Shown piece after piece: positions 20,590 to 36,162 of a DNA stretch of 64,000 nucleotides. Position numbers and translations under genes: made by a program. Location of the stretch: assembly GCA_001803045.1 (NCBI GenBank), contig MHAR01000008.1:116877-180876 (forward strand). The letters are read 5' to 3'. This DNA comes from Ignavibacteria bacterium RIFOXYB12_FULL_35_14. GTDB lineage: Bacteria > Bacteroidota > Ignavibacteria > Ignavibacteriales > Ignavibacteriaceae. A model generated the notes under the pieces. It made no database searches. It worked only from the letters and a program-made list of their open reading frames with translations, and was not told where the DNA came from. Every line of letters begins with the position of its first letter. The first letter of the stretch is position 1.

Positions 20590-20640
20590 CGCTTTATAAT
20601 AATTGGAACAAAAGTTTCAAATTTAATTTTGAGGTATACT

Positions 20641-23382
20641 GTGCCATTATTCATAAGAATAATTCTAATCGCATTGGTGAGCATTTCTGCAGTCTATGCA
20701 GGTGAAACCGGCAAACTAAATGGTTTCATAATAGAAAAGGAATCAAATGAACCCCTGATACGAGCCAATGTTGTTATACTAGGAACAACTTTTGGTGCCT
20801 CTTCGGATTTATCAGGATTTTACTTCATTAATAACATACCTCCTGGCAGCTATCGTGTTCAAATCTCAATGATCGGCTATCAAACTATCATTTTCGAAGA
20901 TGTTAAAATCAGTGCTGATTTTACAACTGAGCTGAATGTAGATTTAGAGAGTGTAACTATTGAAATGAAATCCGAGGTAGTTGTAATCGCAGAAAGATCT
21001 GTCGTTCAGAAGGATTTAACCTCTACTAGAATTGTGGTTGATGGTTCAACTATAGTTGAAGATCTCCGTGCTCAAAACGTAAATGAAATCTTAAAACTTC
21101 AGGCAGGTGTCACAGTCGGAACCGACGGACAATTCCATGTTCGAGGCGGGCGTTCTGGAGGCACAATTTACCAGGTAGACGGTGTTCCTCTTACTAATCC
21201 TTTTTTAAGAAGCTTAGCCGGCGATATTGAAGTTGAAAATGTTCAAGAACTTCAGGCACATTTGGGGACCTTTGATGCTGAATATGGGAATGCTTCCGAT
21301 GGAATTATAACGGTTAGTACTAAAGATGGTGGTAATCAATACTCGGGAAAAATTTCATACGAATCTCCCATGATTAATTCCTCTCCTTACCATGAGAAAG
21401 ACTGGAATTTAAATCGTGAAGAAGTGCAATCGCTTTCCGAAGTAGAGAAAGCAATTTACAAAGACGTAGTAAGAAAACCTGACGGAAGTTCAGCGTATGA
21501 TTTTGTCTCCGTTCTGGATGATCCCTATGTAGAGGATTACTTAGGAATCAAGATGCTCGGAACAATTTCAGGTAATTTATCAGGTCCGGTTCCCTATATT
21601 CCTGACCTTAAATTTTTTATTGCTGGTCGTTTTAGAAATGAAAACAGTCCCTTACCATTTGGATATTCTTTGTATCGATCTTTAACATTTAAGTTAACCT
21701 ATCCGATTCTCTCGACTTTTACTATCCGCGGTTCATACGATTGGTCTCAGAATTTTAACCAGGATTATGATCATGCTTACAAATATTGGCGCTGGTTCGA
21801 TTCGGGGCTTGATACTTTAAATCGATTGGGTTCATATCCTGTAAATAAAGTATTATCGAACAGACAGACAATAAATTTAAAGCATGTACTTTCCCCAAAA
21901 ACCTTTTACGATTTTACTATTGGTAGAATTAAAGATTTTGAGAGTGATATTGTTTCAAATCGTATTGTAGTTTATGATCAGGCTACAGGCGATTTACTTT
22001 CAAGCGATTATTACACAAGGTTATATGTGGGTGGTGTTGAGGGGAGTTTCCGTTACGGTGATGTACGCTATTGGAGGAAAACAGAAAGTACACAATATTT
22101 AGTGAAGGGGAATTTAGAAAGCCAAATTACTAATAATCATCAAATCAGAACCGGTTTTGAATTTAAGAATCATGAAATCTTTAGACACCGCATCGGCATG
22201 GCGCCAAGAACAAATATTGAATTTTTTAATTTCACTCCTATTGAATTAGCTGCCTACATTCAGGATAAAGTTGAATACAGCTTCATGATATTAAAGGTTG
22301 GGATGCGCTTGGATTATTTTGATCCTCGTGCAACTGCCTATCCTGATCCGGCAAATGTGCTGGAGGTTTATACAACACCTTCCGGTTCGGCTGAATATAA
22401 AACTGTTGACAAAGTACCGGTTTCGCCGCATGTACAGGTTAGTCCACGTATCGGAATTGCTCATCCGATTTCGGATAAAACTTCAGTCTATTTTGCTTAT
22501 GGGCATTTTTTCCAGATACCAAGATTTTATGATATTTACAGAAATGATGCCCTTCGAGATATTCTTGCAAATGATGCCTTGGTTGGTAATCCAGGTCTTA
22601 AGCCTGAAAAAACTGTTTCACTTGAAGTTGGTTTGCAGCAGGAAATTTCATCTGACTGGGGATTAAATTTAACAGCCTACTCAAAGGACATTTCAAATCT
22701 CATTTCTAGCTATTACTATTTCGTAGGAAGAGATTATACGATTTTTACAAATGCTGATTTTGGAAGAGTGCAAGGTATAGATGTTACTCTAGATAAAAGA
22801 ATGAGTAACTATTACAGTTTCAGAATTACTTACTCACTGATGTATGCACAGGGAAATGAATCTGATCCGAGTGAGGGATTTAATTCATATAGAGAAGAAA
22901 GCGCTCATCTAAGACCTAACAGAAATTATTATCTTGATTTCGATCAGCGCCATAAAATTAATGCATTTTTAAATTTTCGAATGCCCGAAAAATTTGGTCC
23001 ACAGTTCTTAGGATTTTACCCATTTGAATTGTTTTCTTTAACTGGTGTTTTTACAGCCGGCAGTGGGTTACCTTATACACCTACGTCAAGGGCAGCTGAG
23101 GAATCGAATATTGTTCCCGAAGTTAATAGTGCAAGAAGACCGTGGACATTTAATCTTGATCTCAAGTTATCTAGACGAATACCAACAAATATTTTCGATG
23201 CTACAATTTTTCTTGATATTGAGAACGTATTTGATGCAATGAATACCAGACTGATCTGGACGAGAACCGGTGAAGCTCTGGATCAAGGCCCAACATCGGT
23301 TTTACCTAAAGACAGGCAAGCTAATCCGGCTAATTTAGAACCTAGAAGATCGATACGTGCCGGTTTTTACTTGGAATTTTAA
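20641..23382 (+). CDS. TonB-dependent receptor with carboxypeptidase-regulatory-like N-domain
   Basis: Outer-membrane receptor. I prefer GTG 20641 over TTG 20629 because GAGG at 20631-20634 is well placed for it. A signal peptide (to about AVYAGE) is followed by a carboxypeptidase-regulatory-like beta-sandwich (GKLNGFIIEKESNEPLIRA onward, with SDLSGFYFINNIPPGSYRVQ). The plug follows, with VRGGRSGGTIYQVDGVPLTNP and EYGNASDGIITVSTKDGG, then a large barrel ending in GFYLEF with a C-terminal Phe. Receptors of this form often sit beside T9SS proteins and a PorV-like barrel in Bacteroidota, as here. The ligand is not known. Proximity to the PGA genes suggests, but does not show, a link to polyglutamate. 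Confidence 0.9.
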   Translation: MPLFIRIILIALVSISAVYAGETGKLNGFIIEKESNEPLIRANVVILGTTFGASSDLSGFYFINNIPPGSYRVQISMIGYQTIIFEDVKISADFTTELNVDLESVTIEMKSEVVVIAERSVVQKDLTSTRIVVDGSTIVEDLRAQNVNEILKLQAGVTVGTDGQFHVRGGRSGGTIYQVDGVPLTNPFLRSLAGDIEVENVQELQAHLGTFDAEYGNASDGIITVSTKDGGNQYSGKISYESPMINSSPYHEKDWNLNREEVQSLSEVEKAIYKDVVRKPDGSSAYDFVSVLDDPYVEDYLGIKMLGTISGNLSGPVPYIPDLKFFIAGRFRNENSPLPFGYSLYRSLTFKLTYPILSTFTIRGSYDWSQNFNQDYDHAYKYWRWFDSGLDTLNRLGSYPVNKVLSNRQTINLKHVLSPKTFYDFTIGRIKDFESDIVSNRIVVYDQATGDLLSSDYYTRLYVGGVEGSFRYGDVRYWRKTESTQYLVKGNLESQITNNHQIRTGFEFKNHEIFRHRIGMAPRTNIEFFNFTPIELAAYIQDKVEYSFMILKVGMRLDYFDPRATAYPDPANVLEVYTTPSGSAEYKTVDKVPVSPHVQVSPRIGIAHPISDKTSVYFAYGHFFQIPRFYDIYRNDALRDILANDALVGNPGLKPEKTVSLEVGLQQEISSDWGLNLTAYSKDISNLISSYYYFVGRDYTIFTNADFGRVQGIDVTLDKRMSNYYSFRITYSLMYAQGNESDPSEGFNSYREESAHLRPNRNYYLDFDQRHKINAFLNFRMPEKFGPQFLGFYPFELFSLTGVFTAGSGLPYTPTSRAAEESNIVPEVNSARRPWTFNLDLKLSRRIPTNIFDATIFLDIENVFDAMNTRLIWTRTGEALDQGPTSVLPKDRQANPANLEPRRSIRAGFYLEF

Positions 23383-23397
23383 TTGGAGTTTTCTTTT

Positions 23398-26259
23398 ATG
23401 AAAAAAACTTTTTATAAACTATTTCTATTCTTGATTTTGATGATGTGTTCATTAAATCATTTATTTGCTCAAGATACCGATGCACCCGAAGGAATAGCTG
23501 GAAAAACACTAAAGCCAACAGGATTTGCAGATGAGGCTGTAGGAGTTCAAACTAAAGGGCAGCTGCAGAATTTAACTATGAATTATGGACAGATAAGTGA
23601 TACGAGATTTGAAGATGTAGGTAATGCACCCACTGAAGTTTTTTTTGATATACGTTATCCGCGCGAAAATTTTACTGGATTGGTTGATGATTTTTCAATT
23701 TTCTTTGCGATTAAAGATAATTCAAAAAACGGCGATCAAGGTAATGTTATTGATTCTTGGACAGATAATGATAATGAAGACTTTACTGCAAAGGATGGTT
23801 CCTTTGGTAAAACACATTACAATCCAGCTCTTGACCCTAATCCCCATGAAATTATATTGTATAACGGGCAGACTCCTTACTTAGCTCATAGTGACTTAAA
23901 GAATACATGGCCTGTAGATGCAGAAGGCAATCCTTTCTGGCCGGGAATTTTTAGAAGAAATCCACAAACCGGTGAGCAAGTCCCAGGAGAGTTTGCCTCG
24001 GATAGAGATATTTACATGGAATTTACTGATGCCAACAACCAGCAAGGCGATGTTCTTGGTATTGAGATTCATGAAATGGCTTATACTTACGGAAGAGTGT
24101 ACGCTGAAGATGCTTTGTTTTATGAATTCTGGATAATTAATAAAAGCGGGAAAAATTTAACCGGATGTTATACAGGAATCTATCAAGATCCTGATTGCAG
24201 TGATCATGGTGAAGAAACTTTACCGGTTCTGGATTCAACCTATAGTGATGGTACGAATCTCTTTTCAATTGCAGATAGAGATTTTGACGGTGATATTGGA
24301 GGGGCAACTCGTCCAAATGCACGAGGTATAACTGAAGACTATACTTTCGGTACTGCATTTCTAGAGACACCTTACAATATGGGAATTACAGATTTCCATT
24401 ATTTCACCGACCCTGGTCCGACCGATGATAAACGGCTATGGGCTATTATTAGCAGCAATCCCTCCAATCCAAACATTTTGGCGGAAGCTGGTAACTTTTT
24501 TCATGGTACGGATCCAAGAATTGATGATGTTTCTTTAATCACGGTGAGACAAGATTTAGTTTGGATTGCTGCGACTGGACCATTTAATATGAATGCTGGT
24601 GATACTGTTAAAATGATTATTGCGGTTGTTGCAGGTGATGACGATGCTGATTACTATAATAATTTATGGGCTGCCAAAGAGTTATTTGATGCTAAGTTCA
24701 ATGGACCAATAGCCCCTCCTTCACCGGCGCTTTCAGCAATAGCAGAGGATGGAAGAGTTATCCTCTATTGGGACGATTCCCCTGAAAATTTTGTTGATCC
24801 TTCAACTAATGAATCTGATTTTGAAGGTTATAAAATTTATAGAAGTGAGGATGGCGGGATTACTTGGGGAACAAAAATTACCGATTCCCAAGGAAGAACT
24901 TTTGGGTATGTACCGATAGCCCAATATGATCTGAAAAATAATATTAAAGGGCCCGATACTAGAAATCCTTTAATTTGGCTTGGGTCGGACAACGGACTGA
25001 AACATAGTTGGGTCGATTCAAATGTTGTTAATGGGATTGCTTATTCTTATACAATTGTTTCTTATGATAGAGGAACTCCGACACTCTTTTCGCTTGAAGG
25101 GACAAAAGGTGATGGACCACAGGTGGACTATTTTGTCACTGTAACACCAAAACCCGAAGCCACTGGTAAAATTCCCTCTAATGTTAAAAGTTTTATACAT
25201 ACAAATGGAACCGGCACAGGGCAAATTGATATTGAAATAATTGATGAGAAATCGTTACAAACTTTTCCCTATAAAATTACATTTGAAGGTACTCCAGCTA
25301 CTTTATTTACAATTACAAGACTTGATGAAATTAATACCTTGATTTATGACTCCAGAAAAATATCCGATCTCGATCACCCGGTAGAAGATGGTTTTAGAGT
25401 TAAAGTCTCCACGGATAATAGAATTGGCGGTATAAAATCAATAACTGATGCTAACGGACGAAATGTTGAAGGTCCGACAAATATTAGCAGTGATACTTCG
25501 TGGTATGTGTCTGCTTCATTATTTCCCCAAGCAGACACGGCTTCAAAATCTTCAAGCTATTCTATCAGATTTTCGGATGATGGTAGTGTAGCCTATTCAT
25601 GGGGATTAGCAGGTTCGACAGCAAAATATAATGTTCCATTTTCAATATGGAATACAAACACAAATAATAAAATTTGTTTTGAAATTTTGGATGCAAATAA
25701 TAATAACCAATGGGATGAAGGCGAAAATATTTTTATCACACGAGTTCCCTATCCTGATCCCGTACCCGTTATTGGAAGTCCGAATCCTGCAACAATCGCA
25801 AAAGAATTTGCATACCAGGTTTCTATACAAAATACACCATTAGATACATTAAAAAGGCCTCCAAGTCAGGGCACAATTATTAATATTACCAGTTACAATG
25901 CATTAAGGGCTGAAGATGAATATACTTTTGAATTCAATAAAGCACAATTTGATTCTAAGAATGCAGACTTAAGCCAGATACGGGTTGTTCCTAATCCCTA
26001 CATTGTTACTTCAAAATATGAAGCACTTCAAAATGTACGTGAAATACAATTTATGTATTTACCTCCAGAGTGTAATATTTATATTTATACTGTATCCGGA
26101 ACCCTTGTTAAAGTAATTGAGCATAAAAGCGGTGAGGGTTCTTTAAGCTGGAATTTATTAACTGATTGGAATCAAGCACTCGCATTCGGTGTGTACATAT
26201 ATGTGGTTGAGGATCCATTTGGAAATACTCATCGCAGTAAATTCGCATTAATTAAATAA
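23398..26259 (+). CDS. Large secreted protein with fibronectin-III-like region and T9SS-like tail
   Basis: 953 residues from ATG 23398. The in-frame TTG at 23383 is rejected because GGAG at 23385-23388 serves the ATG and a signal peptide (ending LFAQD) follows. The body is unrecognised; its middle contains a fibronectin-III-like segment (PALSAIAEDGRVILYWD and EGYKIYRSEDGG). The C-terminal 90 residues (VVPNPYIVTSKYE, IYTVSGTLVKVIEH, AFGVYIYVVEDPFG and a final KFALIK) form a variant T9SS-type sorting domain. It starts 15 bases after the receptor gene and is followed 11 bases later by a PorV/PorQ-family barrel. This receptor/secreted protein/PorV arrangement suggests a surface complex. Function unknown. 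Confidence 0.8.
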   Translation: MKKTFYKLFLFLILMMCSLNHLFAQDTDAPEGIAGKTLKPTGFADEAVGVQTKGQLQNLTMNYGQISDTRFEDVGNAPTEVFFDIRYPRENFTGLVDDFSIFFAIKDNSKNGDQGNVIDSWTDNDNEDFTAKDGSFGKTHYNPALDPNPHEIILYNGQTPYLAHSDLKNTWPVDAEGNPFWPGIFRRNPQTGEQVPGEFASDRDIYMEFTDANNQQGDVLGIEIHEMAYTYGRVYAEDALFYEFWIINKSGKNLTGCYTGIYQDPDCSDHGEETLPVLDSTYSDGTNLFSIADRDFDGDIGGATRPNARGITEDYTFGTAFLETPYNMGITDFHYFTDPGPTDDKRLWAIISSNPSNPNILAEAGNFFHGTDPRIDDVSLITVRQDLVWIAATGPFNMNAGDTVKMIIAVVAGDDDADYYNNLWAAKELFDAKFNGPIAPPSPALSAIAEDGRVILYWDDSPENFVDPSTNESDFEGYKIYRSEDGGITWGTKITDSQGRTFGYVPIAQYDLKNNIKGPDTRNPLIWLGSDNGLKHSWVDSNVVNGIAYSYTIVSYDRGTPTLFSLEGTKGDGPQVDYFVTVTPKPEATGKIPSNVKSFIHTNGTGTGQIDIEIIDEKSLQTFPYKITFEGTPATLFTITRLDEINTLIYDSRKISDLDHPVEDGFRVKVSTDNRIGGIKSITDANGRNVEGPTNISSDTSWYVSASLFPQADTASKSSSYSIRFSDDGSVAYSWGLAGSTAKYNVPFSIWNTNTNNKICFEILDANNNNQWDEGENIFITRVPYPDPVPVIGSPNPATIAKEFAYQVSIQNTPLDTLKRPPSQGTIINITSYNALRAEDEYTFEFNKAQFDSKNADLSQIRVVPNPYIVTSKYEALQNVREIQFMYLPPECNIYIYTVSGTLVKVIEHKSGEGSLSWNLLTDWNQALAFGVYIYVVEDPFGNTHRSKFALIK

Positions 26260-26270
26260 GGAAAAAATAA

Positions 26271-27290
26271 ATGAGATTCTTAACAATAATTATTTTTATC
26301 CTTTACTTAATTCCGAACTACGGTCAGGAGGCAAATAAAGCCGGAACTACGGCAGCACAATTCTTAAAAATCGGTGTTGGGGCTGCTTCTCTTGGAATGG
26401 CTGGTACAAGTGCAGGTTTAGTGAATGATGCAAGTTCGATGTATTGGAATCCTGCCGGACTTATAGGAGTGAATTCAATCTCCGTTATTGCTTCATATAC
26501 TGACTGGTTTGTGGATTTAAAGCATCAATATTTCGGGATTGTACTTCCTATAAATGAAGATCATAAAATTGGTGTAGGTGCAATGATACTTACAATGGGG
26601 GAAATGGAAATTACAACTGAACAGCAGCCAAAAGGCACAGGTGATTTTTTTGATGCTTCCGATGTTATGGTAGGTCTTACTTATTCTGCCCGATTAGTTG
26701 ATTTCTTTACTTTTGGGATTTCGGTTAAATACATAACACAAAATATTTATAACGAAACCGCATCTGCGTTAGCTGTTGATATCGGGACTAATCTTATCAC
26801 TGGCTACAAGGGAATTAAAGTTGGAATGGCACTTACAAATTTCGGAACCACGATGACCCTTGCCGGAAGAGACTTGCAAAAATCTTATGATCCTCTCCCA
26901 AATAATGCGACTAATGTTGGCATTGCCAGTAATCTAAAAACCGAGGCTTGGGAACTTCCTTTAAATTTTCGTGTGGGCATCGGCTGGGATTTTATTGGTA
27001 AAGGAGATGTGATGATTTACGATCCAATACATAGTATCAAAATCGGAATAGATGCTAATCATCAAAATGATGGACCTGAAAATGCTTCCATAGGAATTGA
27101 ATATAAGTGGCAGAATTTAATAGCCCTTCGCTCCGGTTATTATTTTAATGACGATGTGAGAAAACTTGCCGTAGGTTTTGGACTAAACTGGGATGTACCT
27201 CAATCCTTTGCAGTTGGTGTAGATTATGCTTTCGCCGAATTGGATCGATTAGGATCAGTACATTCCATCTCTCTTAAAGTCGGATTCTAA
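26271..27290 (+). CDS. PorV/PorQ-family outer-membrane beta-barrel protein
   Basis: 339 residues with a signal peptide. The mature N-terminus (GTTAAQFLKIGVGAASLGMA, then ASSMYWNPAGL) is the hallmark of the PorV/PorQ (UPF0164-like) family, whose members are FadL-type barrels. PorV is the T9SS shuttle protein that delivers substrates to the sortase PorU. The end is beta-rich with a terminal Phe (SLKVGF), as expected for barrel insertion. It may serve the secreted protein encoded just upstream. The next gene's ATG follows the TAA directly, with no gap, so expression is probably coupled. Confidence 0.88.
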   Translation: MRFLTIIIFILYLIPNYGQEANKAGTTAAQFLKIGVGAASLGMAGTSAGLVNDASSMYWNPAGLIGVNSISVIASYTDWFVDLKHQYFGIVLPINEDHKIGVGAMILTMGEMEITTEQQPKGTGDFFDASDVMVGLTYSARLVDFFTFGISVKYITQNIYNETASALAVDIGTNLITGYKGIKVGMALTNFGTTMTLAGRDLQKSYDPLPNNATNVGIASNLKTEAWELPLNFRVGIGWDFIGKGDVMIYDPIHSIKIGIDANHQNDGPENASIGIEYKWQNLIALRSGYYFNDDVRKLAVGFGLNWDVPQSFAVGVDYAFAELDRLGSVHSISLKVGF

Positions 27291-28565
27291 ATGAGCATTG
27301 AACTTCTGATACTTATAGCAATGCTGGCAGCATTCGCTATAAGTGTCTTCTTTTTAAAGCTTCCCGCGGGTGTTTCACTCATGCTTGCAGCCATTACCGG
27401 TGCTTTGGTAGACGGTGAAGGGCTGCCAGTTCGTCATTTGGTCGAGGGTAGTTTTGGGTTTTTAGAAGCAATTTTAATTATCTCAACTGCAATGATTTTT
27501 ATGAAAGTAGTAGATGCAACCGGTGCGCTAAGAACAATAAGTTATGGATTGATAAGGTCGCTCTATCGGTTACCTCTATTATTAATGGTAATAATTACTT
27601 TGTTTATTATGTTTCCCGGAATGTTAACCGGACTCTCCTCTGCGTGTATTCTAACAACCGGAGCCCTGGTTGTTCCTGCGCTTTTGGCAATGGGTATTCC
27701 TCCTAAACCTGCTGGTGCCTTAATTGCCATGGCGGCTGTTTTTGGCGAGATTGCTCCGCCGATTAGCATACCTGCAATGATCATTGGAGGTGGAGTTGAT
27801 ATGCCCTATATCGGTTTTGGCGGGCCGCTTTTTGTGGCTTCATTTCCCCCGGCTATTTTAACTGCAATTTATTTTCGATATAGATTTTTAAAGAAGTTCG
27901 ATATAAAAGAAGTTCTTGCCAAAATGGAAAAACCTGTTTATTCAAACCATGGAATTAAATTATTTATTCCATTAATTGCAGTGATTACTCTTCTGATTGC
28001 TGAAAGGACTTTTCCTGAATTGATGCCGCATTTAGGTATTCCATTAATATTTTTGATCGGAACCTTAATTGGATTTGGTACAGGTGAAAAATTTAATTTG
28101 TTTCAGCTAATGCGTAGTGCTATTCGTAATGCACTACCTGTTATGAGCATTTTAGTTGGTATAGGAATGTTCATTCAAATTATGACCTTAACCGGTGTGA
28201 GAGGTTTTATTGCCGTAACTGCCTTAGAAATGCCTGAGAGTGTAAAATATTTAGCTGGGTTAATTATGCCTTTCTTCGGTTCTGCCTACGCTTCGGCTTC
28301 GGTTGTGGGGATTCCTCTTGTTTTTGTTTTTATAGGCAGAAGCGAAATTGTTGTTGCATCGGCGTTAGCTCTATTAGCGGCAATGGGAGATTTGATGCCG
28401 CCGCCTTCACTTTTATGTGCATACGCCGGACAACTGGTTAAAGTTAAAAATCATTTCCTAATTCTCAAAGAAAGTATTATACCTATAATAATGACTCTAG
28501 CAATTGGGGTGATGATTATAATTTTTTCAAAAGAAATAGGAATTTTTTTATCAAAAATTTTTTAA
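27291..28565 (+). CDS. TRAP-transporter large-permease-like (DctM) protein in a poly-gamma-glutamate cluster
   Basis: 424 residues, at least ten membrane helices, with the DctM-type repeats GEIAPPISIPAMIIGGG (about 151-168) and MGDLMPPPSLLCAYAGQL (about 365-382). TRAP transporters normally need a DctP binding protein and a small DctQ permease; neither is encoded nearby. The 48-residue protein that follows is too short for DctQ. Family knowledge links such lone permeases to PgsBCW loci in fusobacteria and others, as far as I recall. I infer either glutamate/oligoglutamate import or a role in moving the polymer. The ATG abuts the stop of the PorV-like gene, and the operon continues for eight more genes. 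Confidence 0.88.
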   Translation: MSIELLILIAMLAAFAISVFFLKLPAGVSLMLAAITGALVDGEGLPVRHLVEGSFGFLEAILIISTAMIFMKVVDATGALRTISYGLIRSLYRLPLLLMVIITLFIMFPGMLTGLSSACILTTGALVVPALLAMGIPPKPAGALIAMAAVFGEIAPPISIPAMIIGGGVDMPYIGFGGPLFVASFPPAILTAIYFRYRFLKKFDIKEVLAKMEKPVYSNHGIKLFIPLIAVITLLIAERTFPELMPHLGIPLIFLIGTLIGFGTGEKFNLFQLMRSAIRNALPVMSILVGIGMFIQIMTLTGVRGFIAVTALEMPESVKYLAGLIMPFFGSAYASASVVGIPLVFVFIGRSEIVVASALALLAAMGDLMPPPSLLCAYAGQLVKVKNHFLILKESIIPIIMTLAIGVMIIIFSKEIGIFLSKIF

Positions 28566-28574
28566 GGTGAAATT

Positions 28575-28721
28575 GTGCTCTACTGGATATACATATTTAT
28601 TGTTGCCGTAATAACCTGGATTATTTTGGTGGAATTATTTTCCGAGAGAGACTGGAAAAAGCAGATTGCATTAGCAATGCTTTTAATCCCCTTTTTATTA
28701 AGAATTCTTCAGGTAAAATAA
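28575..28721 (+). CDS. Small membrane protein (48 residues) of the PGA cluster
   Basis: GTG 28575 preceded by AAGGTGA (28564-28570) opens a 48-codon frame ending in TAA 28719-28721. The sequence starts MLYWIYIFIVAVITWIILVE and has two hydrophobic segments (about 4-20 and 33-45) around a charged turn (SERDWKKQ). It fills the gap between the TRAP-like permease and the deacylase exactly, with nine and three bases on either side, which argues for a real gene. I do not recognise a family. It may be an accessory subunit standing in for a DctQ-type small permease, but that is a guess. Confidence 0.65.
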   Translation: MLYWIYIFIVAVITWIILVELFSERDWKKQIALAMLLIPFLLRILQVK

Positions 28722-28724
28722 CCG

Positions 28725-29843
28725 ATGAAAAAAAATCATATCATAGCATTATTAATAATTGCTGTCGTGTTAATATTGGATTCGATTGCTGGAATTGAAT
28801 TTAGGGAAATGAAAATTCAGGAAAAAATTCATCCTACAAAAACCTTAACTAAAGAAAGTAGTCTCTCTGAATACTGTACCAATTTACAAGGAAAGTCTGG
28901 CGATGCAAAAATATATTTCTTCGACAGTGGAAATCTTGGAGCTACAGTTTTAGTTTTGGGTGGTACTCATCCAAATGAAACTGCAGGGTTTATTTCAGCT
29001 TTAGTTTTAATTGAGAACATGGACATTAAGCAAGGAAGATTTATAATAATTCCGCAGGCCTGCAGCAGCGGTTTTACATGCACCGATCCGATGGAAGGAA
29101 CACCTCAATCATTTACGATAGAGACTAATTCTGGTCCAAGGAAATTCCGGTTTGGGTCTAGGGTTTCTAATCCATTAGATCAATGGCCTGATCCTCTTGT
29201 TTACTCACATTATCCATCCGGTCAGCAATTATCAGGTTTTGAAACGAGAAATTTAAATAGATCATATCCGGGCAGAAGCAACGGATCATTTACAGAAACA
29301 GTTGGATTTGCTATTATGGAATTGATAAGACTAGAAAAAGTTGATGTTGCAATAGATCTACACGAAGCTTCACCTGAAGCGCCAATTATTAATGCAATTA
29401 TTGTTCATGAGAAATGCAGAGAAATTGGTGCATCTGCAGTTCTGAATTTAGAGTTTGAAGATCTCCAATATGCTTTGGAAATATCTCCTAAAAAATTTAG
29501 AGGATTAAGTCACAGAGAATGGGGAGATGCAACTGATGTCTACCCATTTTTAATGGAGACAAGTAATCCTATACAGGGGAGATTGAGGGGGAAAACAAAT
29601 TCTATTTTAATAACTGACGGATTAGATGACCAGTACGAAAGGGCAGTAAGAACAAAATCTTTCAGGATATCTTATGAGCTTGCCGGTGAACCATTATCAT
29701 TGCGGGTCGGAAGGCATATTCAAGGCATCAAAGCGATCTTAGATTCTTATAATGAATATTCAAATGATAAGAAAATAGTATATGAGAATATTCCTTCCTA
29801 TGATGATTTAGTAGAGAACGGAGTCGGATCGTACTTAAGGTAA
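28725..29843 (+). CDS. Succinylglutamate desuccinylase/aspartoacylase-family (M14-like) hydrolase
   Basis: 372 residues with an N-terminal membrane anchor or uncleaved signal (about 6-21). Zinc ligands of the carboxypeptidase-like family are visible: GGTHPNETAG gives H82 and E85, and DLHEASPEAP gives H213. NLNRSYPG at 177-184 matches the substrate-binding NxNR motif. A possible catalytic Glu lies near the end (YELAGEP, about 310-316). Relatives remove acyl groups from amino acids (succinylglutamate, aspartate) or act as carboxypeptidases. Placed in a PGA operon and probably facing the periplasm, it may cut or trim glutamyl amide bonds; this is inference. It starts three bases after the small ORF. 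Confidence 0.85.
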   Translation: MKKNHIIALLIIAVVLILDSIAGIEFREMKIQEKIHPTKTLTKESSLSEYCTNLQGKSGDAKIYFFDSGNLGATVLVLGGTHPNETAGFISALVLIENMDIKQGRFIIIPQACSSGFTCTDPMEGTPQSFTIETNSGPRKFRFGSRVSNPLDQWPDPLVYSHYPSGQQLSGFETRNLNRSYPGRSNGSFTETVGFAIMELIRLEKVDVAIDLHEASPEAPIINAIIVHEKCREIGASAVLNLEFEDLQYALEISPKKFRGLSHREWGDATDVYPFLMETSNPIQGRLRGKTNSILITDGLDDQYERAVRTKSFRISYELAGEPLSLRVGRHIQGIKAILDSYNEYSNDKKIVYENIPSYDDLVENGVGSYLR

Positions 29844-29874
29844 AGCAATAATTCTTATAATTCGAGGAGTAAAA

Positions 29875-30447
29875 ATGAAACTAATGTTTAAATTACTAAT
29901 TGTATATTTCTTACCCTTAGTTTGTGTTCCTACGACAAATGCCCAAACACCTAAATATCAGCAGCCCGTTTTAATTTCATCGGCTGGGCAAAGTGCTGAT
30001 GTAACATTAGCGGGAATGTTATTCAAAAAATTAAAACTGCATTACAAAGTAATAAACTTAGCAAAAGAAACTGATCTTGAAGGTATTAACACATTAGTAA
30101 TTGTTCCAGGATTCAGTTCCAAAGGGTTAGGTGCCGCAGGTATTAGCAGAGAAGATGAAATGAAACGCATTAAAGAGTTGATTAATTCTGCAAAAAAGAA
30201 GAAAATTAAAATACTCATGCTTCATATCGGCGGTAATGCAAGAAGAGGAAATCAATCGGATGATTTCAACAAGCTTGCTGCGGAATCTTCACGCTACATG
30301 ATTGTTGTAAGTCAAGCCGATGAAGATAAATTTTTCAGCAGTATCTCTAAAAAAACAAAAATTCCTATAAAGCTTGTTTATAAAATTGCCCAGGCTTCCG
30401 AACCGATAAATCAGTTATTTAATCAATCTCCTTCAACGGATAAATGA
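29875..30447 (+). CDS. DUF6305-like secreted protein of the PGA cluster
   Basis: 190 residues with a signal peptide (cleavage after TNAQ, about residue 25). The mature part looks like a flavodoxin/Rossmann-type alpha-beta domain: QPVLISSAGQSADVTLAG, then INTLVIVPGFSSKGLGAAG, KIKILMLHIGGNARRGN and MIVVSQADEDKFFS. I match it from memory to DUF6305, a domain found next to PgsB/C/W genes; the function is unknown. The AGGAG upstream of the ATG is good. The last four bases overlap the start of ggt (ATGA), so translation is coupled. Confidence 0.7.
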   Translation: MKLMFKLLIVYFLPLVCVPTTNAQTPKYQQPVLISSAGQSADVTLAGMLFKKLKLHYKVINLAKETDLEGINTLVIVPGFSSKGLGAAGISREDEMKRIKELINSAKKKKIKILMLHIGGNARRGNQSDDFNKLAAESSRYMIVVSQADEDKFFSSISKKTKIPIKLVYKIAQASEPINQLFNQSPSTDK

Positions 30448-32159
30448 AAAACACTAATAACAAATTAATAATCCTCTTTACAGTATTCCTTACACTTTCA
30501 GGTTCTGTCTTTAGCCAAAAAAGGCAGCCGGAAATCGTTAGTGGCAAAAATGGAATGATTGCCACAGCACATCCTCTTGCCTCAAATGCAGCTTTGGAGA
30601 TATTGAAATTGGGAGGTAATGCTGTTGATGCTGCAGTTGCAGCGGCATTTGTAATTGGAGTGGTTGAACCCGATGGATCAGGACTTGGAGGCGGCGGAGG
30701 AATATTAATTTATTTAAGCAAAGAAAAGAAACCAGTCTATATAAATTATTATCAGCGTACCTCTTCTCAGGTAGATAAATTAGATTTTAACAATAAAACT
30801 GAAAATAAAACAGTAAAAGCTATATTAGTGCCCGGTACAGTAGCCGGATTGATCACAGCTTTGGAAAATTATGGAACTCTTCCACTTTCCAAAGTTATTG
30901 CACCTGCTATAAGACATGCAGAAGAAGGTTTTCCGGTTGATGCAACTCTTGCTGGAATTATTCTTGATAATGTTGAAGTTCTGCAGAAATATTCGGTGAC
31001 AAGCTCTATTTATTTGCCTGATGGTTTTCCAATTATGGAAGGTGATATTCTAATTCAAAAAGATTTAGCGAGAACTCTGAAAATCATCTCTGAAAAGGGA
31101 AAGGATGGATTTTATTCAGGAGAGGTTGCCGAAAAAATAACAAATGGAATCAGATCTGAAGGGGGAATAATTACTCTTGCTGATTTTAATAATTATGAAG
31201 CTATAATTACCGATCCAACTTTTGGAACATACAGAGGTTATCAGATTGTTTCTGCTCACGAACCTCAATCCGGTGCATCAATTGTTGAGGCTTTAAATAT
31301 TCTTGAGAATGAAGACATTAGTACTTTAGGTCATTACACAACAAATAGTGAAACATTATATTTAATGGCGGAAACGTTCAGAAGGGTTTATGCTGACAGG
31401 AGCGCCTTCATTGAGGATCCGCGTTTCGGATATGTGCCGGTTGATGAACTTACTTCAAAAGAATATGCAAACTCTCGCTATGAAGATATTAAGAACGAGA
31501 AATCAGTGCCAAAAGAATATCGGAAAACAAAACCTGGTAATCCTTTAAATTTTATTGAACCGCTTGATACTGTGAAAGAAGAAATTGAAAAGGTGCTTGA
31601 ACAAGACGGGCATACAACTCATTTATCAGTAATTGACAAGGACGGAAATGTAGTTTCTCTTACTCAAACCCTTGGTACCTTCTTCGGATCAGGATTTACA
31701 GCAGCCGGAGTTTTGATGAATAATGCTCTAATGAATTTTTCATTTTCATCCAAAATAAATGATGTTGAACCTAACAAACAACCAAGGAGTTCTATAGCTC
31801 CGACAATAATTTTGCAGGACAATAAACCAATTATTGCAATTGGCTCGCCCGGTGCTTCACGTATCATTGCAACGGTTGTACAAATGATAGTAAATCTTAT
31901 TGATTTTAAAATGACTGCGGAAGAAGCAAACTTTGCTCCAAGATTTTTCTGTCAAAAATTCGATGATTATCTATATGTAGAGAGTAGAATACCTCAAAAT
32001 ATTATTGATACATTGAAACTAAAAGGGCATAACGTCCAGGTTTTAGGTGATTACGATTTATTTTTCGGCGGGGCACAACTAATTACAGTTGATTCAGTTA
32101 CCGGAATTTTTTATGGTTCGGCTGATCCAAGGCGCGGTGGAATTGCGCTTGGTTACTAA
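30444..32159 (+). CDS. ggt: Gamma-glutamyltransferase
   Basis: Periplasmic N-terminal-nucleophile hydrolase that cleaves or transfers gamma-glutamyl groups. 571 residues with a signal peptide (to about VFSQ). The large-subunit region has GGNAVDAAVAAAFVIGVVEPDGSGLGGGG, split here as GGNAVDAAVAAA and EPDGSGLGGGG. The autoprocessing site is GHTTHLS, with T391 the expected nucleophile and new N-terminus of the small subunit. NNALMNFSF and SPGASRI complete the active-site signatures. Bacillus PGA loci also carry a GGT-type enzyme (PgdS is separate; CapD is GGT-like) that cuts the polymer or attaches it to the cell surface. The enzyme's place just before pgsB suggests the same job here. Confidence 0.95.
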   Translation: MKNTNNKLIILFTVFLTLSGSVFSQKRQPEIVSGKNGMIATAHPLASNAALEILKLGGNAVDAAVAAAFVIGVVEPDGSGLGGGGGILIYLSKEKKPVYINYYQRTSSQVDKLDFNNKTENKTVKAILVPGTVAGLITALENYGTLPLSKVIAPAIRHAEEGFPVDATLAGIILDNVEVLQKYSVTSSIYLPDGFPIMEGDILIQKDLARTLKIISEKGKDGFYSGEVAEKITNGIRSEGGIITLADFNNYEAIITDPTFGTYRGYQIVSAHEPQSGASIVEALNILENEDISTLGHYTTNSETLYLMAETFRRVYADRSAFIEDPRFGYVPVDELTSKEYANSRYEDIKNEKSVPKEYRKTKPGNPLNFIEPLDTVKEEIEKVLEQDGHTTHLSVIDKDGNVVSLTQTLGTFFGSGFTAAGVLMNNALMNFSFSSKINDVEPNKQPRSSIAPTIILQDNKPIIAIGSPGASRIIATVVQMIVNLIDFKMTAEEANFAPRFFCQKFDDYLYVESRIPQNIIDTLKLKGHNVQVLGDYDLFFGGAQLITVDSVTGIFYGSADPRRGGIALGY

Positions 32160-32233
32160 TAAATACCATGATATACACTTATTAGAAGCATATTAATAGC
32201 TAAGTAAAAAACGTTGAGGGATAATAGGGAGCA

Positions 32234-33403
32234 ATGACTCTTTTCTTTGTGCTTGTAATCTTCTCATTTATTCTCTTAATAGCAGAATATTGGAATATAC
32301 GACGTTGCGTTAATAAAATTCCTTTAAGAATTCTTGTTAATGGCACCCGAGGTAAATCGAGTGTGACTAAATATATTGCAGCCGGATTAAGAATAGCTGA
32401 CAAAAGAACAATCGGCAAAATAACTGGAATAATTCCCACGATAATTTATCCGGATGGTTCTGAGAAAATTATCAAAAGAATTGCTCCTGCACGCATACAG
32501 GAGCAATTTAAAGTCATAAGATTAGCATCTAAGCTTTCTGCTGATTGTCTGGTACTTGAATGCATGTCTATAACTCCCGCTTTGCAAAAATTAGAGACCA
32601 CAATCTTCAGACCCAACATTTTTGTAATTACTAATATTCGAGATGATCACCGCGAGCAAATCGGGAATGAGCAAGAGCAGGTAATTTCCTTGTGTGAAGC
32701 AATTCCTTCAAATTCAATTGTGGTGACTGATGAAAAAAAATATTTAAGTGAAATCGAGGCATCGGCAAAGTCGAAAAATTCATCCTTAATTTATGTTGAA
32801 GATTCCATCAATTTTAAAAATATCGATATTCCTACCAATGTGTTAGAATCAAATATTAAAATCGCTTTGGCAGTCTGTAAACTCGCAAAAATTGAAAAAG
32901 AGAAATCGGGAAAGCCTGTGTTGGAGATGATAAAGAATTTCGAGGAATTGCTTTTTGAATTTCCTTTTGTAGATAAAAAAATAAGGTTTATAAACGGCTT
33001 TGCAGTCAACGATGTACCATCTTCTCAGGAATTTATCGATTACTGGGAGAAGAAGTTAGGTGGATTCAGGCATTTGAATATTATCTTTAATTCAAGATCC
33101 GATCGTCCACTCCGATCTCTCGTGTTTGCAAAATGGATAGGTACAATTAAAAATTTGAACGGAGTAATCCTCATAGGCAGTCATATTCCCAGATTCAGAT
33201 TAGAGTTAATTCGTAATGGAATTAAATCTCAAAAAATAACTGTATGGGGAAAAAGCAAGATAAAAAGTGTACAAGAAAATCTTGGGAAAATTGCTGGAAC
33301 AGACTTAGTATTTATTGGCTTGGGTAATATTGCTGGCGATGGATTGCTGTTGATAAATTCTTTGAAAGAAAATGCACTGGTAAGAATCGATAATGCTAAT
33401 TGA
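32234..33403 (+). CDS. pgsB: Poly-gamma-glutamate synthase PgsB/CapB
   Basis: ATP-dependent Mur-ligase-like enzyme that, with PgsC, polymerises glutamate through gamma-amide bonds at the inner membrane. 389 residues with an N-terminal membrane helix (about 3-18), then the P-loop NGTRGKSSVTKYIAAGLR (from residue 36). The second-domain motif ECMSITPALQ follows, with TNIRDDHREQIG as the characteristic CapB segment. Length and order fit CapB. The last 11 bases overlap the start of pgsC, so the two are coupled. A 74-base gap separates it from ggt. Confidence 0.95.
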   Translation: MTLFFVLVIFSFILLIAEYWNIRRCVNKIPLRILVNGTRGKSSVTKYIAAGLRIADKRTIGKITGIIPTIIYPDGSEKIIKRIAPARIQEQFKVIRLASKLSADCLVLECMSITPALQKLETTIFRPNIFVITNIRDDHREQIGNEQEQVISLCEAIPSNSIVVTDEKKYLSEIEASAKSKNSSLIYVEDSINFKNIDIPTNVLESNIKIALAVCKLAKIEKEKSGKPVLEMIKNFEELLFEFPFVDKKIRFINGFAVNDVPSSQEFIDYWEKKLGGFRHLNIIFNSRSDRPLRSLVFAKWIGTIKNLNGVILIGSHIPRFRLELIRNGIKSQKITVWGKSKIKSVQENLGKIAGTDLVFIGLGNIAGDGLLLINSLKENALVRIDNAN

Positions 33404-33821
33404 ATCATTTTTTGTCGGACTCATTGTCGGATTTTTATTCTATGAAACAGTTGGGATTTCTCCTGGCGGCGTTATTGCTCCGGCATACTTTGCCTTATTC
33501 ATTCATCAACCGGGAAAAATTGCTGTAACAATCACCATCGCAATAATTGTATGGTTGGCAATTCTTTTCTTATCGAGATGGTTGATAATATACGGCAGGA
33601 GAAAATTATTAATTGCTTTGATTCTTGGATTTCTTTTTAAACTTTTATTTGAATATAAATTACAGCCGGTAGCAGGATTTCAAATCGATCTTCAATCGAT
33701 AGGTTACATAATTCCGGGTTTAATCGCCAATGAAATGGTTCGTCAAAAGGTGTTTCCAACTCTTGCTGCTTTGGGAATAGTAACAATTATAATTTACTTA
33801 ATATTAGTGTTATTCAACTGA
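33393..33821 (+). CDS. pgsC: Poly-gamma-glutamate biosynthesis membrane protein PgsC/CapC
   Basis: 142 residues, four or five membrane helices. The opening MLIESFFVGLIVGFLFYETVG (residues 1-21 read in pieces: SFFVGLIVGFLFYE) and SPGGVIAPAYFALF are standard for PgsC, as is GYIIPGLIANEMVRQ near the end. PgsC forms the synthase complex with PgsB. It overlaps pgsB by 11 bases and pgsW by one (TGATG), so the three should be made in fixed ratio. Confidence 0.95.
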   Translation: MLIESFFVGLIVGFLFYETVGISPGGVIAPAYFALFIHQPGKIAVTITIAIIVWLAILFLSRWLIIYGRRKLLIALILGFLFKLLFEYKLQPVAGFQIDLQSIGYIIPGLIANEMVRQKVFPTLAALGIVTIIIYLILVLFN

Positions 33822-34873
33822 TGTACCATTCAAAATTAAAATATGAATTAAAACTTGTTCTAATTTTTTCTTTCGCTTTGATCTCACTAGTAATTATTGA
33901 AATTTTCTTTACTAAATATGAAGAGCGAATTGACTATAACAAAATGAGTGAGGCAGTTAGCTTAGCTGAAAAATGGTTCGGTGCTATCGATCAAATGAAG
34001 AAAGAAAGGAATATTTCAAGTGATGTTAAGACTAACATAAAATACAGCAATTTAATCGGAAATGAATTTACTGATATTACAACCACTCTGAGTTCATTAG
34101 GTACTAAAGAAATTTCTACTAATCCGAATTTTGCAGCACTAATCTTAAAATATATGACAGATTCTGGCATCGATTCAGCTAAAACCGTGGGAATAATTTT
34201 GTCGGGTTCTTTTCCCTCATTAGCAATATCAAGTCTAGCCGCAGCTCAGGCTATGAAGGTAAAAGCCATATTATTTAGTTCACTAGGTGCATCGATGTTC
34301 GGGGCAAATCAATTTGGTGCAACATGGATAGACATGGAATGTTATTTAAGAGAAAAGAGTAATTTAAAATACAGATCTTCCCTAACTACACTTGGTGGAG
34401 AAAATGATAATGGCGGAGGATTAAGTGGAGAGGGAATTAGAATACTTAAGGCGACAGCTTCAAATTATAATGTTGATTTTTATATTCCTAATTCCTTTAA
34501 AGAAAGTGTCGGGAAGAAAGTTGATATTCTTTTAAAAAACAAAATTGATTTGCTGATTAACGTTGGGGGAAATCAGACGGGTCTTGGGGTTTGTGTTCAT
34601 TCTTCAAATATTCCAAACGGTTTGCATAGTAAAATAGAAAGCTGCGGAGATGAGGATCGAGGAATCATTATGCGTCTCTCAGAAAAAGGCATCCCATTCA
34701 TTAACCTATTGAACATTAGAAGTCTTGCAATTGATAATGATTTATCGCTAAATCCGTCGGTGGTTTCGTCCAGTTCAATTTATTGGGAAAGAAAAATAAA
34801 AAAAATTCCTGTTGCTTTTTCTTTATTTATATTATCAGGATTATTATTACTCATTAGAAAGAAGTGCATATAA
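33821..34873 (+). CDS. pgsW: Poly-gamma-glutamate system protein PgsW-like
   Basis: 350 residues with one N-terminal helix (about 10-28) and one C-terminal helix (about 330-346), enclosing a periplasmic alpha-beta domain (LAALILKYMTDSGI in variant form, then GIILSGSFPSLAISSLAA, SSLGASMFGANQFGATW, INVGGNQTGLG). I match it to the poly-gamma-glutamate system family (TIGR04332, PgsW). As I recall it, that family replaces CapA/PgsA in some Gram-negative PGA operons. No CapA gene is seen here, which fits. The start overlaps the pgsC stop by one base and its stop overlaps the next ATG (TAATG). Confidence 0.87.
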   Translation: MYHSKLKYELKLVLIFSFALISLVIIEIFFTKYEERIDYNKMSEAVSLAEKWFGAIDQMKKERNISSDVKTNIKYSNLIGNEFTDITTTLSSLGTKEISTNPNFAALILKYMTDSGIDSAKTVGIILSGSFPSLAISSLAAAQAMKVKAILFSSLGASMFGANQFGATWIDMECYLREKSNLKYRSSLTTLGGENDNGGGLSGEGIRILKATASNYNVDFYIPNSFKESVGKKVDILLKNKIDLLINVGGNQTGLGVCVHSSNIPNGLHSKIESCGDEDRGIIMRLSEKGIPFINLLNIRSLAIDNDLSLNPSVVSSSSIYWERKIKKIPVAFSLFILSGLLLLIRKKCI

Positions 34874-36162
34874 TGAAGAAATTTCTAATTTTGTTCTTAT
34901 TGTTTACAGTTGGCAGTTACGCTCAAACAATTATTTCAGGTAATTTGGAAAATTATGTCAATAATTATTTAAGCAATATTCCAAATTCAAGTTCTTCAGA
35001 TGAATATCAGCCACCGGCTGATTCAAATTTAAATGAATGGGCTAACACTATAGAAAATATTATCTTAAAGAACTACAACTCAGCAGATCTGAAGGCGTCT
35101 TCTTTTGATTATCAAATAGTGAGATTTACTGATACATCCGATACTGAAAACACAGAATATATAATTCTTGAAAAGAAAGCTGCCTCTACAAATTTCTGGG
35201 GTATTTTTATTTTTAATCCTGTGGCAATAAGACAAAAACTAATTATTCAAGCTCCTCATCCATTACATGATAGTAATACAGGTAAAGAATCTCTAATCAT
35301 CTTTAAAACTTCGGGAGCGAGAGCTTTATTTATAAGCGGTACACACAGATGTAACAGTTCCGTTTTTACTACTTGTTCAGGTACGACTACAGTCTGCAGC
35401 AGTACATCCCAAAGCTATCGGATATCGGATCAGGCGCATGTTGTTAACGGTACTTTTCAAAAAACCACCGAAGTTCTATTACCATTGATTGAAAATCTGA
35501 TTGTCATCCAACCCCATGGCTTTGCTAAACAAAGCAGTGATCCTGATTTAATAATGAGCAATGGCACACAATTGACTCCTTCAGGCATTGATTATTTATC
35601 TTTGCTAAAAACTAATCTCCTGAATCTTGATAATTCGCTGACGTTTAAAATTGCTCATATTGATCTAGCTTGGACAAGACTAATAGCAACAACAAACACC
35701 CAGGGGAGGTTAATAAATGGAAGTATTAATCCGTGTAATCTTAATTCTCCATCAACATCTGGAAGATTTTTACATTTAGAGCAGGCATTCGCAAAGTTGA
35801 GAGATTCTAAAACAAATTGGATAAAATTTGCAAATGCCGTTACCATGACATTTCCTGAAGACCCTCTTGTAGATGTTAAGGATGATATTTCCTCAGAATA
35901 TGATTATTTCTTATTTCAAAATTATCCGAATCCATTTAATCCGATAACTACAATAAAATATTCAATTAAGCATTCGGGTTTTGTTTCTTTAAAAGTCTTT
36001 GATATTTTAGGTCGAGAGATAGCAAGTCTTGTTAGTGATGTACAGCCAGAGGGCAATCACTCATATATTTTTGATGGGCAAAATCTTACTAGTGGAGTTT
36101 ATTTTATTTCATTGACTGTTGAGGGAATTGTAATCTCAAGTAAAATGATAGTGGCTAAATAA
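34873..36162 (+). CDS. T9SS-sorted histidine-rich protein, candidate PGA-acting enzyme
   Basis: 429 residues from ATG 34873, which overlaps the last base of the pgsW stop. An in-frame GTG at 34864 is less likely because MKKFLILFLLFTVGSYAQ from the ATG is a clean signal peptide. The central domain is of no family I know. It has clustered His/Asp residues that could bind a metal: APHPLHDSNT, SGTHRC and QPHGFAK. Cysteines lie at CNSS, TTCSG and VCSS. The tail is a type A T9SS domain (NYPNPFNPITTIKYSI, VFDILGREIASLV, SGVYFISLTV, final KMIVAK). Its place as the last coupled gene of the PGA operon suggests a surface protein that cuts, caps or tethers the polymer; this is inference. Confidence 0.75.
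   Translation: MKKFLILFLLFTVGSYAQTIISGNLENYVNNYLSNIPNSSSSDEYQPPADSNLNEWANTIENIILKNYNSADLKASSFDYQIVRFTDTSDTENTEYIILEKKAASTNFWGIFIFNPVAIRQKLIIQAPHPLHDSNTGKESLIIFKTSGARALFISGTHRCNSSVFTTCSGTTTVCSSTSQSYRISDQAHVVNGTFQKTTEVLLPLIENLIVIQPHGFAKQSSDPDLIMSNGTQLTPSGIDYLSLLKTNLLNLDNSLTFKIAHIDLAWTRLIATTNTQGRLINGSINPCNLNSPSTSGRFLHLEQAFAKLRDSKTNWIKFANAVTMTFPEDPLVDVKDDISSEYDYFLFQNYPNPFNPITTIKYSIKHSGFVSLKVFDILGREIASLVSDVQPEGNHSYIFDGQNLTSGVYFISLTVEGIVISSKMIVAK

What the first reader, a model, noticed from the sequence alone, without database searches (positions are those of the whole stretch)
27291..36162. Poly-gamma-glutamate locus with PgsW and a lone TRAP permease but no CapA/PgsA
Nine same-strand genes with gaps of 0-74 bases or overlaps: TRAP-like DctM, 48-residue membrane protein, M14-like deacylase, DUF6305-like protein, GGT, PgsB, PgsC, PgsW, T9SS-sorted protein. 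PgsB, PgsC and GGT identities are clear from motifs. The classic third component CapA/PgsA is missing. The DctM protein has no DctP or DctQ partner, so it may have a special role such as moving glutamate or the polymer. This arrangement suggests a Gram-negative PGA system that makes, moves and trims polymer across two membranes.
Basis: partly seen in the sequence, partly recalled or inferred. Interest (0 to 1): 0.75.

Follow-up and report, generated by a model that had tools for sequence, protein, structure and literature searches.

The report
Polyglutamate make-and-reclaim gene cluster
This stretch holds a bacterial gene set that appears both to build the glutamate polymer poly-gamma-glutamate and to cut it up and take it back in through an undescribed relative of TRAP transporters; nearly the same set recurs in about a dozen bacterial groups, but its function is inferred from genes, not measured.

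Summary
In detail: nine packed same-strand genes at 27291-36162 encode a DctM-like permease, a 48-residue two-helix protein, an AstE/AspA-type zinc amidohydrolase, DUF6305, GGT, PgsB, PgsC, TIGR04332 (PgsW) and a T9SS-sorted protein. The genome has no DctP or DctQ and one PF09587 (CapA-type) protein, on another contig among unrelated genes. The run extends upstream to a TonB-dependent receptor, a 958-aa surface protein and a PorV-type barrel (20629-27290).

The set is widely conserved. In 39 named DctM loci with both flanks held, the 48-residue protein, DUF6305 and GGT occur in 39, AstE in 38, PgsW in 35. Twelve genomes whose locus showed no PgsW all carry it elsewhere. Ten of ten PgsW-selected Fusobacteriaceae loci carry the module.

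Missing CapA is not a gap: PgsBC alone makes PGA in B. subtilis (PMC6029982). DctM groups with AstE, GGT and DUF6305, and half of the PgsBCW loci in this phylum sample lack it. Best reading: the cell makes PGA, cuts it and re-imports glutamate or short gamma-glutamyl pieces through a DctM-based transporter with new partners. Gene association is well supported; direction and substrate are inferred.

The parts
20629..23382 (+). TonB-dependent receptor (outer-membrane importer), probable first gene of the run
   Evidence: PF00593 83.5 bits, Plug 30.1, CarbopepD_reg_2 63.9; homologue upstream of DctM in several loci
23383..26259 (+). 958-aa surface-protein-like partner of the receptor; multi-copy family in this genome
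   Evidence: no Pfam domain; 22 matching stretches in the own genome; conserved between the receptor and PorV in other loci
26271..27290 (+). PorV/PorQ-family outer-membrane barrel
   Evidence: NF033709 197.5 bits against cut-off 90; directly upstream of DctM in several loci
27291..28565 (+). DctM-like permease without DctP/DctQ
   Evidence: PF06808 at cut-off; family profile matches TRAP permease 9pym at E 0.011; no DctP/DctQ in genome
28575..28721 (+). 48-residue two-helix membrane protein, candidate DctQ substitute
   Evidence: directly after DctM in 65/65 testable named loci; conserved C-terminal motif; two hydrophobic segments
28725..29843 (+). AstE/AspA-type zinc amidohydrolase with N-terminal membrane anchor
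   Evidence: PF24827; invariant H82, E85, H213, N178, R179 in 25 sequences; N-terminal hydrophobic segment
29875..30447 (+). DUF6305 protein, extracytoplasmic; candidate receptor or accessory of the permease
   Evidence: PF19823 169 bits; signal peptide-like start here and lipobox in most Clostridial members; single alpha/beta domain model, pLDDT 91
30444..32159 (+). gamma-glutamyltransferase (GGT), exported
   Evidence: TIGR00066 468.6 bits; signal-like N-terminus and TTHLSV nucleophile region in the translation
32234..33403 (+). PgsB/CapB amide ligase
   Evidence: TIGR04012 above cut-off; NGTRGKSS P-loop in the translation
33393..33821 (+). PgsC/CapC membrane subunit
   Evidence: TIGR04011 and PF14102 above cut-off
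33821..34873 (+). PgsW (TIGR04332), extracytoplasmic domain between two membrane helices
   Evidence: TIGR04332 272.4 bits; model pLDDT 95.8, no clear structural relative
34864..36162 (+). T9SS-exported protein, candidate secreted metal-dependent amidohydrolase
   Evidence: sorting tail; invariant H132, D136, H192, H218, H304, E306 in 13 relatives near the same loci; fold family not settled

Best explanation
A poly-gamma-glutamate (PGA) make-and-take-back system. PgsB, PgsC and PgsW polymerise glutamate at the inner membrane and deliver the polymer to the outside. Extracytoplasmic enzymes then cut it: GGT takes single glutamates from the amino end (known for B. subtilis GGT); the membrane-anchored AstE/AspA-type enzyme is proposed to cut the gamma-glutamyl-to-glutamate amide, which is chemically close to the N-succinyl-glutamate bond cut by AstE; the T9SS-exported protein is proposed to cut outside the cell. 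In two-membrane species a TonB-dependent receptor set brings fragments through the outer membrane. The DctM-like permease, with the 48-residue two-helix protein in place of DctQ and DUF6305 as a possible extracytoplasmic receptor in place of DctP, carries glutamate or short gamma-glutamyl chains into the cytoplasm by an ion gradient. Shown here: gene identities, fixed association across many bacterial groups, absence of DctP/DctQ and of a CapA in the locus, conserved catalytic residues of AstE. Inferred: all activities in this organism, the substrate, direction of transport, and the complex between DctM, the 48-residue protein and DUF6305.
For: Synthesis: PgsB, PgsC and TIGR04332 above cut-offs. 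Fixed association: in 39 named DctM loci with at least 8 kb on both sides, the 48-aa protein 39, DUF6305 39, GGT 39, AstE 38, PgsB 34, PgsC 34, PgsW 35; 12 of 12 genomes with a split or cut-off locus have PgsW elsewhere; in 395 phylum genomes DUF6305 and PgsW overlap in 6 (of 7 and of 12; Fisher p about 1e-9); PgsW-selected Fusobacteriaceae loci carry the module in 10 of 10 examined. DctM belongs to the degrading half: it stays with AstE, DUF6305 and GGT when pgs genes are elsewhere and co-diverges most with AstE (r 0.90 against 0.74-0.82 with PgsB/C/W). Uptake rather than export: TonB receptor-958 aa-PorV trio directly before DctM here and in several Ignavibacteria/Calditrichota/KSB1-type loci; SusC/RagA importer (TIGR04056 614 bits) directly after PgsW in eight Bacteroidales-type loci; histidine kinase plus response regulator, some with a DpiA-like DNA-binding domain, in Clostridia, Synergistota, Fusobacteria and Spirochaetes. 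Substrate glutamate: a glutamate-racemase-like protein with signal peptide-like start and secreted N-formylglutamate-amidohydrolase-like proteins sit at many of the same loci. DUF6305 is a lipoprotein by sequence in most Clostridial members, as expected of a membrane-held receptor in single-membrane cells. [quoted passage not shown]
Against: No transport or binding datum exists. DUF6305 models as one small alpha/beta domain, unlike the two-lobed DctP or TAXI receptors, and its best structural matches are weak; it could be an enzyme. The PF06808 match is only at the cut-off. One genome (G152) has DctM, the 48-aa protein, AstE, DUF6305 and GGT but no detected PgsW. The receptor/958-aa/PorV trio is a multi-copy set in this genome, so its presence may be less specific than the rest. 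The 80 named loci were gathered by DctM similarity, and many are metagenome bins.
Confidence: 0.58

Rival explanations
1. DctM is the polymer or glutamate exporter: it moves PGA (or feeds glutamate outward), and the hydrolases only trim the exported chain.
For: DctM, PgsBC and PgsW are in one run of genes here and co-occur almost without exception when DctM is present.
Against: Six of twelve PgsW-positive genomes in the phylum sample have PgsBCW with no DUF6305 and no DctM in the 20 kb examined; they carry instead a conserved 305-aa protein and a barrel-like protein after PgsW. DctM co-diverges more with AstE than with PgsBC. B. subtilis makes PGA with PgsBC alone (PMC6029982). TonB/SusC neighbours point inward.
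Confidence: 0.14
2. The module is mainly for eating foreign PGA or gamma-glutamyl peptides from the surroundings; PgsBCW is a separate function that happens to be co-regulated.
For: SusC/RagA or TonB receptor neighbours and two-component systems resemble polymer-utilisation loci; the T9SS-exported protein acts outside the cell.
Against: The near-total co-occurrence with PgsW, even when the genes lie apart, is hard to explain if synthesis is unrelated.
Confidence: 0.17
3. PgsBC here does not make a glutamate homopolymer but another gamma-glutamyl or amino-acid amide product, and AstE, GGT and DctM handle that product.
For: PgsB is a Mur-ligase-type enzyme; AstE/AspA relatives act on several N-acyl amino acids; the best NCBIfam hit of AstE is DoeB at low score.
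Against: PgsB and PgsC pass equivalog cut-offs; glutamate-racemase-like and N-formylglutamate-amidohydrolase-like neighbours point to glutamate.
Confidence: 0.11

Closest known systems
PgsBCA(E)/CapBCA(E) poly-gamma-glutamate synthase of Bacillus
   Same: PgsB ligase and PgsC membrane subunit in the same order; a GGT-family enzyme can be in the locus (CapD)
   Different: No CapA/PgsA in the locus; TIGR04332 protein in its place; AstE, DUF6305, DctM and 48-aa genes have no counterpart
Three-gene Gram-negative pgs clusters (Fusobacterium nucleatum, Candela et al. 2009, pmid 19483793; content recalled from the abstract, paper not held)
   Same: pgsB, pgsC and a third gene unrelated to capA, which is most likely TIGR04332/PgsW
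   Different: The accessory module is, as far as I can tell, not described; it is present in all ten PgsW loci examined in Fusobacteriaceae, species unnamed
TRAP transporters (DctPQM, TAXI)
   Same: DctM-like permease accompanied by a small membrane protein and an extracytoplasmic protein
   Different: No DctP or DctQ; the membrane partner has two helices instead of four; the extracytoplasmic protein is a single alpha/beta domain
TAXI-GltS glutamate transporter of Bordetella (PMC12344293)
   Same: An extracytoplasmic protein paired with an unexpected secondary transporter, glutamate as ligand
   Different: There the receptor is of TRAP type and the membrane part is not; here it is the reverse, and the ligand is unproven
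Polysaccharide utilisation loci (SusC/D)
   Same: TonB-dependent or SusC/RagA importer next to hydrolases, inner-membrane transporter and, in other lineages, two-component regulators
   Different: The inferred substrate is a polyamide, and the locus also holds the synthase of that polymer

Membership tests
Poly-gamma-glutamate synthase, PgsBC core | PgsB amide ligase and PgsC above curated cut-offs, adjacent | tested here: met
   TIGR04012 253.4/222.7, TIGR04011 118.9/96.5, overlapping ORFs, P-loop NGTRGKSS
Poly-gamma-glutamate synthase, PgsBC core | PGA produced | not testable with these tools
   needs culture and chemistry
PgsBCA(E) type | capA/pgsA in the operon | tested here: not met
   only PF09587 protein is on contig C80 among unrelated genes
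PgsBCW type | TIGR04332 protein directly after PgsC | tested here: met
   272.4 bits against cut-off 100
TRAP transporter | DctM domain | tested here: inconclusive
   PF06808 23.8 at cut-off 23.8, 22.5 in genome search; profile hit to TRAP permease 9pym E 0.011
TRAP transporter | DctP solute-binding protein (TAXI type not searched) | tested here: not met
   no PF03480 in the genome; absent also from 9 of 34 other genomes with the module
TRAP transporter | DctQ subunit | tested here: not met
   no PF04290 in the genome; only the 48-aa two-helix protein follows DctM
AstE/AspA zinc amidohydrolase | zinc ligands HxxE and H, plus NxNR motif | tested here: met
   invariant H82, E85, H213, N178, R179; PF24827 above cut-off
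AstE/AspA zinc amidohydrolase | cleaves gamma-glutamyl-glutamate | not testable with these tools
   needs enzyme assay
Gamma-glutamyltransferase | full-length TIGR00066 match and nucleophile threonine region | tested here: met
   468.6 bits, residues 37-563; TTHLSV present
PghP-type PGA hydrolase or N-formylglutamate amidohydrolase (for the T9SS protein) | family-level match | tested here: inconclusive
   no catalytic Pfam domain in 13 members; profile comparison with the N-formylglutamate-amidohydrolase-like set: probability 8%, E 0.004

The most novel reading that the evidence does not exclude
The DctM-like protein, the 48-residue two-helix protein and DUF6305 form a new three-part secondary transporter for glutamate or gamma-glutamyl oligomers, with both usual TRAP partners replaced, dedicated to reclaiming self-made poly-gamma-glutamate in about a dozen bacterial groups.
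Probability: 0.42. Interest if true: 0.75.

Novelty: new variant of a known kind. Interest (0 to 1): 0.62.

Why it matters
If right, PGA in many uncultured and amino-acid-fermenting bacteria is not just a capsule but a polymer that is made, cut and taken back, a kind of external glutamate store. It would also give a first function to DUF6305, to a conserved 48-residue protein and to a clade of DctM-like proteins that lack DctP and DctQ, and would suggest that TRAP-type permeases can work with other partners. Cultivable carriers exist (Clostridium tetanomorphum, Clostridium pascui, Cetobacterium, Oscillibacter), so the idea is directly testable.

Tried and rejected
Scan of named genomes with the PgsW protein alone found nothing; the DctM alignment was used instead. 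Structure searches with good models of DUF6305 (pLDDT 91) and PgsW (95.8) gave no clear relative: DUF6305 best Foldseek hits are SGNH esterases with TM near 0.3, and best Z is 9.0 among common alpha/beta folds; PgsW has no Foldseek E under 0.001 and best Z 8.0, within the noise level stated by the tool, so neither can be filed structurally. DUF6305 and PgsW are not detectably related. The T9SS protein could not be assigned by Pfam, PDB profiles or profile comparison. The Pfam count over 79 neighbour ORFs shows no DctP, DctQ or CapA among the 25 commonest of 113 families; rarer families were not listed, so this is not proof of absence. Promoter scan gave no more sites than shuffles. Literature: no paper found names PgsW in this sense, TIGR04332 or DUF6305, and none links PgsB with DctM; the library lacks most subscription journals. 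I considered the 48-aa protein as a CapE/PgsE analogue; its fixed place next to DctM, also where pgs genes are elsewhere, speaks against it, but no sequence comparison with PgsE was made.
Full report
What is there. The nine genes are real and at the stated coordinates. The strongest assignments are GGT, PgsB, PgsC, TIGR04332 and DUF6305, all above cut-offs. The permease is a distant DctM: exactly at Pfam's cut-off in one scan and just under it in the genome search, and a profile of 46 relatives finds only one PDB chain, an isethionate TRAP permease, at E 0.011. The M14-like protein is an AstE/AspA-type amidohydrolase with all zinc ligands and the N-x-N-R motif invariant in 25 relatives. The run of genes starts further upstream than reported: a TonB-dependent receptor (20629-23382), a 958-aa protein and a PorV-type barrel precede DctM with gaps of 0-11 nt.

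What is missing. The window lies in a 4.10 Mb assembly rated 100% complete. That genome has one DctM, no DctP and no DctQ, and its only PF09587 protein lies on another contig among BioY, Fe-S protein, MFS and Dus genes. PF09587 is a broad family; it rings in 7 of 14 control genomes, among them E. coli and Caulobacter.

Is it conserved. A scan of named genomes with a DctM alignment returned 140 relatives, best 80 kept. Record titles include Ignavibacteriae, Bacteroidales, Calditrichota, Zixibacteriota, KSB1, Acidobacteria, Clostridiales and other Bacillota, Spirochaetales, Cetobacterium, Synergistota, Bipolaricaulota, Atribacteria and Desulfobacteraceae; most are metagenome bins, so single outliers could be misbinned. 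Of 39 loci with 8 kb or more on both sides, 39 have the 48-aa ORF right after DctM, 39 DUF6305, 39 GGT, 38 AstE, 34 PgsB, 34 PgsC, 35 PgsW. Twelve genomes in which no PgsW was seen at the locus (split, or cut by a contig end) all have PgsW elsewhere. Selection by DctM makes DctM itself trivial, so the reverse was tested. Among 395 genomes of the phylum, PgsW is in 12 and DUF6305 in 7, with 6 in common (Fisher p about 1e-9; a PgsW fragment in G306 was left out; related genomes are not independent, so the p value is optimistic). Ten PgsW loci of Fusobacteriaceae, chosen by PgsW, all carry DctM, the 48-aa ORF and AstE, and nine of ten DUF6305 and GGT, the tenth being cut by a contig end.

Which half does DctM belong to. 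In six PgsBCW genomes of the phylum the module is absent, and a 305-aa protein and a barrel-like protein follow PgsW. Where pgs genes lie apart, DctM stays with AstE, DUF6305 and GGT. Pairwise distances of DctM follow AstE (r 0.90) more than PgsB, PgsC or PgsW (0.79, 0.74, 0.82) in 52 loci. So DctM looks like part of an accessory, degrading half rather than of the synthase.

Direction. Nothing in the sequence proves direction. The neighbours favour uptake: TonB receptor-958 aa-PorV trios just before DctM, SusC/RagA importers just after PgsW in eight Bacteroidales-type loci, secreted N-formylglutamate-amidohydrolase-like enzymes in about twenty loci, a glutamate-racemase-like protein in about a dozen, the one read having a signal peptide-like start, and two-component systems, some with the DpiA-like domain of citrate regulators. 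The trio is multi-copy in this genome, so it looks like a general uptake cassette recruited here.

Partners of the permease. The 48-aa protein has two hydrophobic segments and a conserved C-terminus. DUF6305 has a signal peptide-like start, and a lipobox in most Clostridial members; its invariant residues include GQS, KGLG, R98, H117, R123, R124 and D151, mostly near the ends of strands in a good single-domain model. Basic invariant residues suit an acidic ligand such as glutamate, but an enzyme is also possible; structure searches do not decide.

Known and new. PGA synthesis by PgsBC, GGT as an exo-acting PGA enzyme and zinc carboxypeptidase-like PGA hydrolases are known (PMC4497714). F. nucleatum PGA production is cited in PMC3815933; that its third gene is unlike capA is from my memory of the 2009 abstract. 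Experiments on TRAP systems suggest that they need their binding protein (PMC5812351), and swaps of receptors between transporter classes are only now being described (PMC12344293). I found no description of the DctM-48aa-AstE-DUF6305-GGT set with PgsBCW in the held library. I therefore call it a new variant of a known kind, with the three-part transporter as the new element still to be proven.

Noticed in passing
L016-L021: A second PGA-type architecture: pgsB-pgsC-pgsW followed by a conserved 305-aa protein and a 380-aa outer-membrane-barrel-like protein, without the DctM module. It could be a dedicated outer-membrane export route.
   Followed up: partly
L078:16221-18213, L080:3862-5791, L074, L081 and others: Histidine kinase and response regulator pair next to PgsW or GGT in Clostridia, Fusobacteria, Synergistota and Spirochaetes; some regulators carry a DpiA-like DNA-binding domain.
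   Followed up: partly
L042:17652-20840, L047:17629-20823 and six more loci: SusC/RagA-type TonB importer directly after PgsW, same strand, in Bacteroidales-type loci.
   Followed up: partly
L031:14820-15899 and about a dozen loci: Glutamate-racemase-like protein with a signal peptide-like start (TIGR00067 75 bits, under cut-off), which would be an extracytoplasmic racemase.
   Followed up: partly
L113, L115, L055, L095: Second, divergent copy of the DctM, 48-aa and AstE module (with DUF6305 and pgsBCW in L113 and L115); some genomes hold two systems.
   Followed up: no
window 23383-26259: 958-aa protein family without Pfam domain, 22 matching stretches in the own genome, lying between a TonB receptor and a PorV-type barrel; may be a SusD-like partner family of this lineage.
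   Followed up: partly
L109 (G152): DctM, 48-aa, AstE, DUF6305 and GGT present, with interposed genes, but no PgsW detected in the genome: the only exception seen.
   Followed up: partly
window 37687-41157: 1156-aa ORF with no Pfam domain, downstream of the T9SS genes.
   Followed up: no
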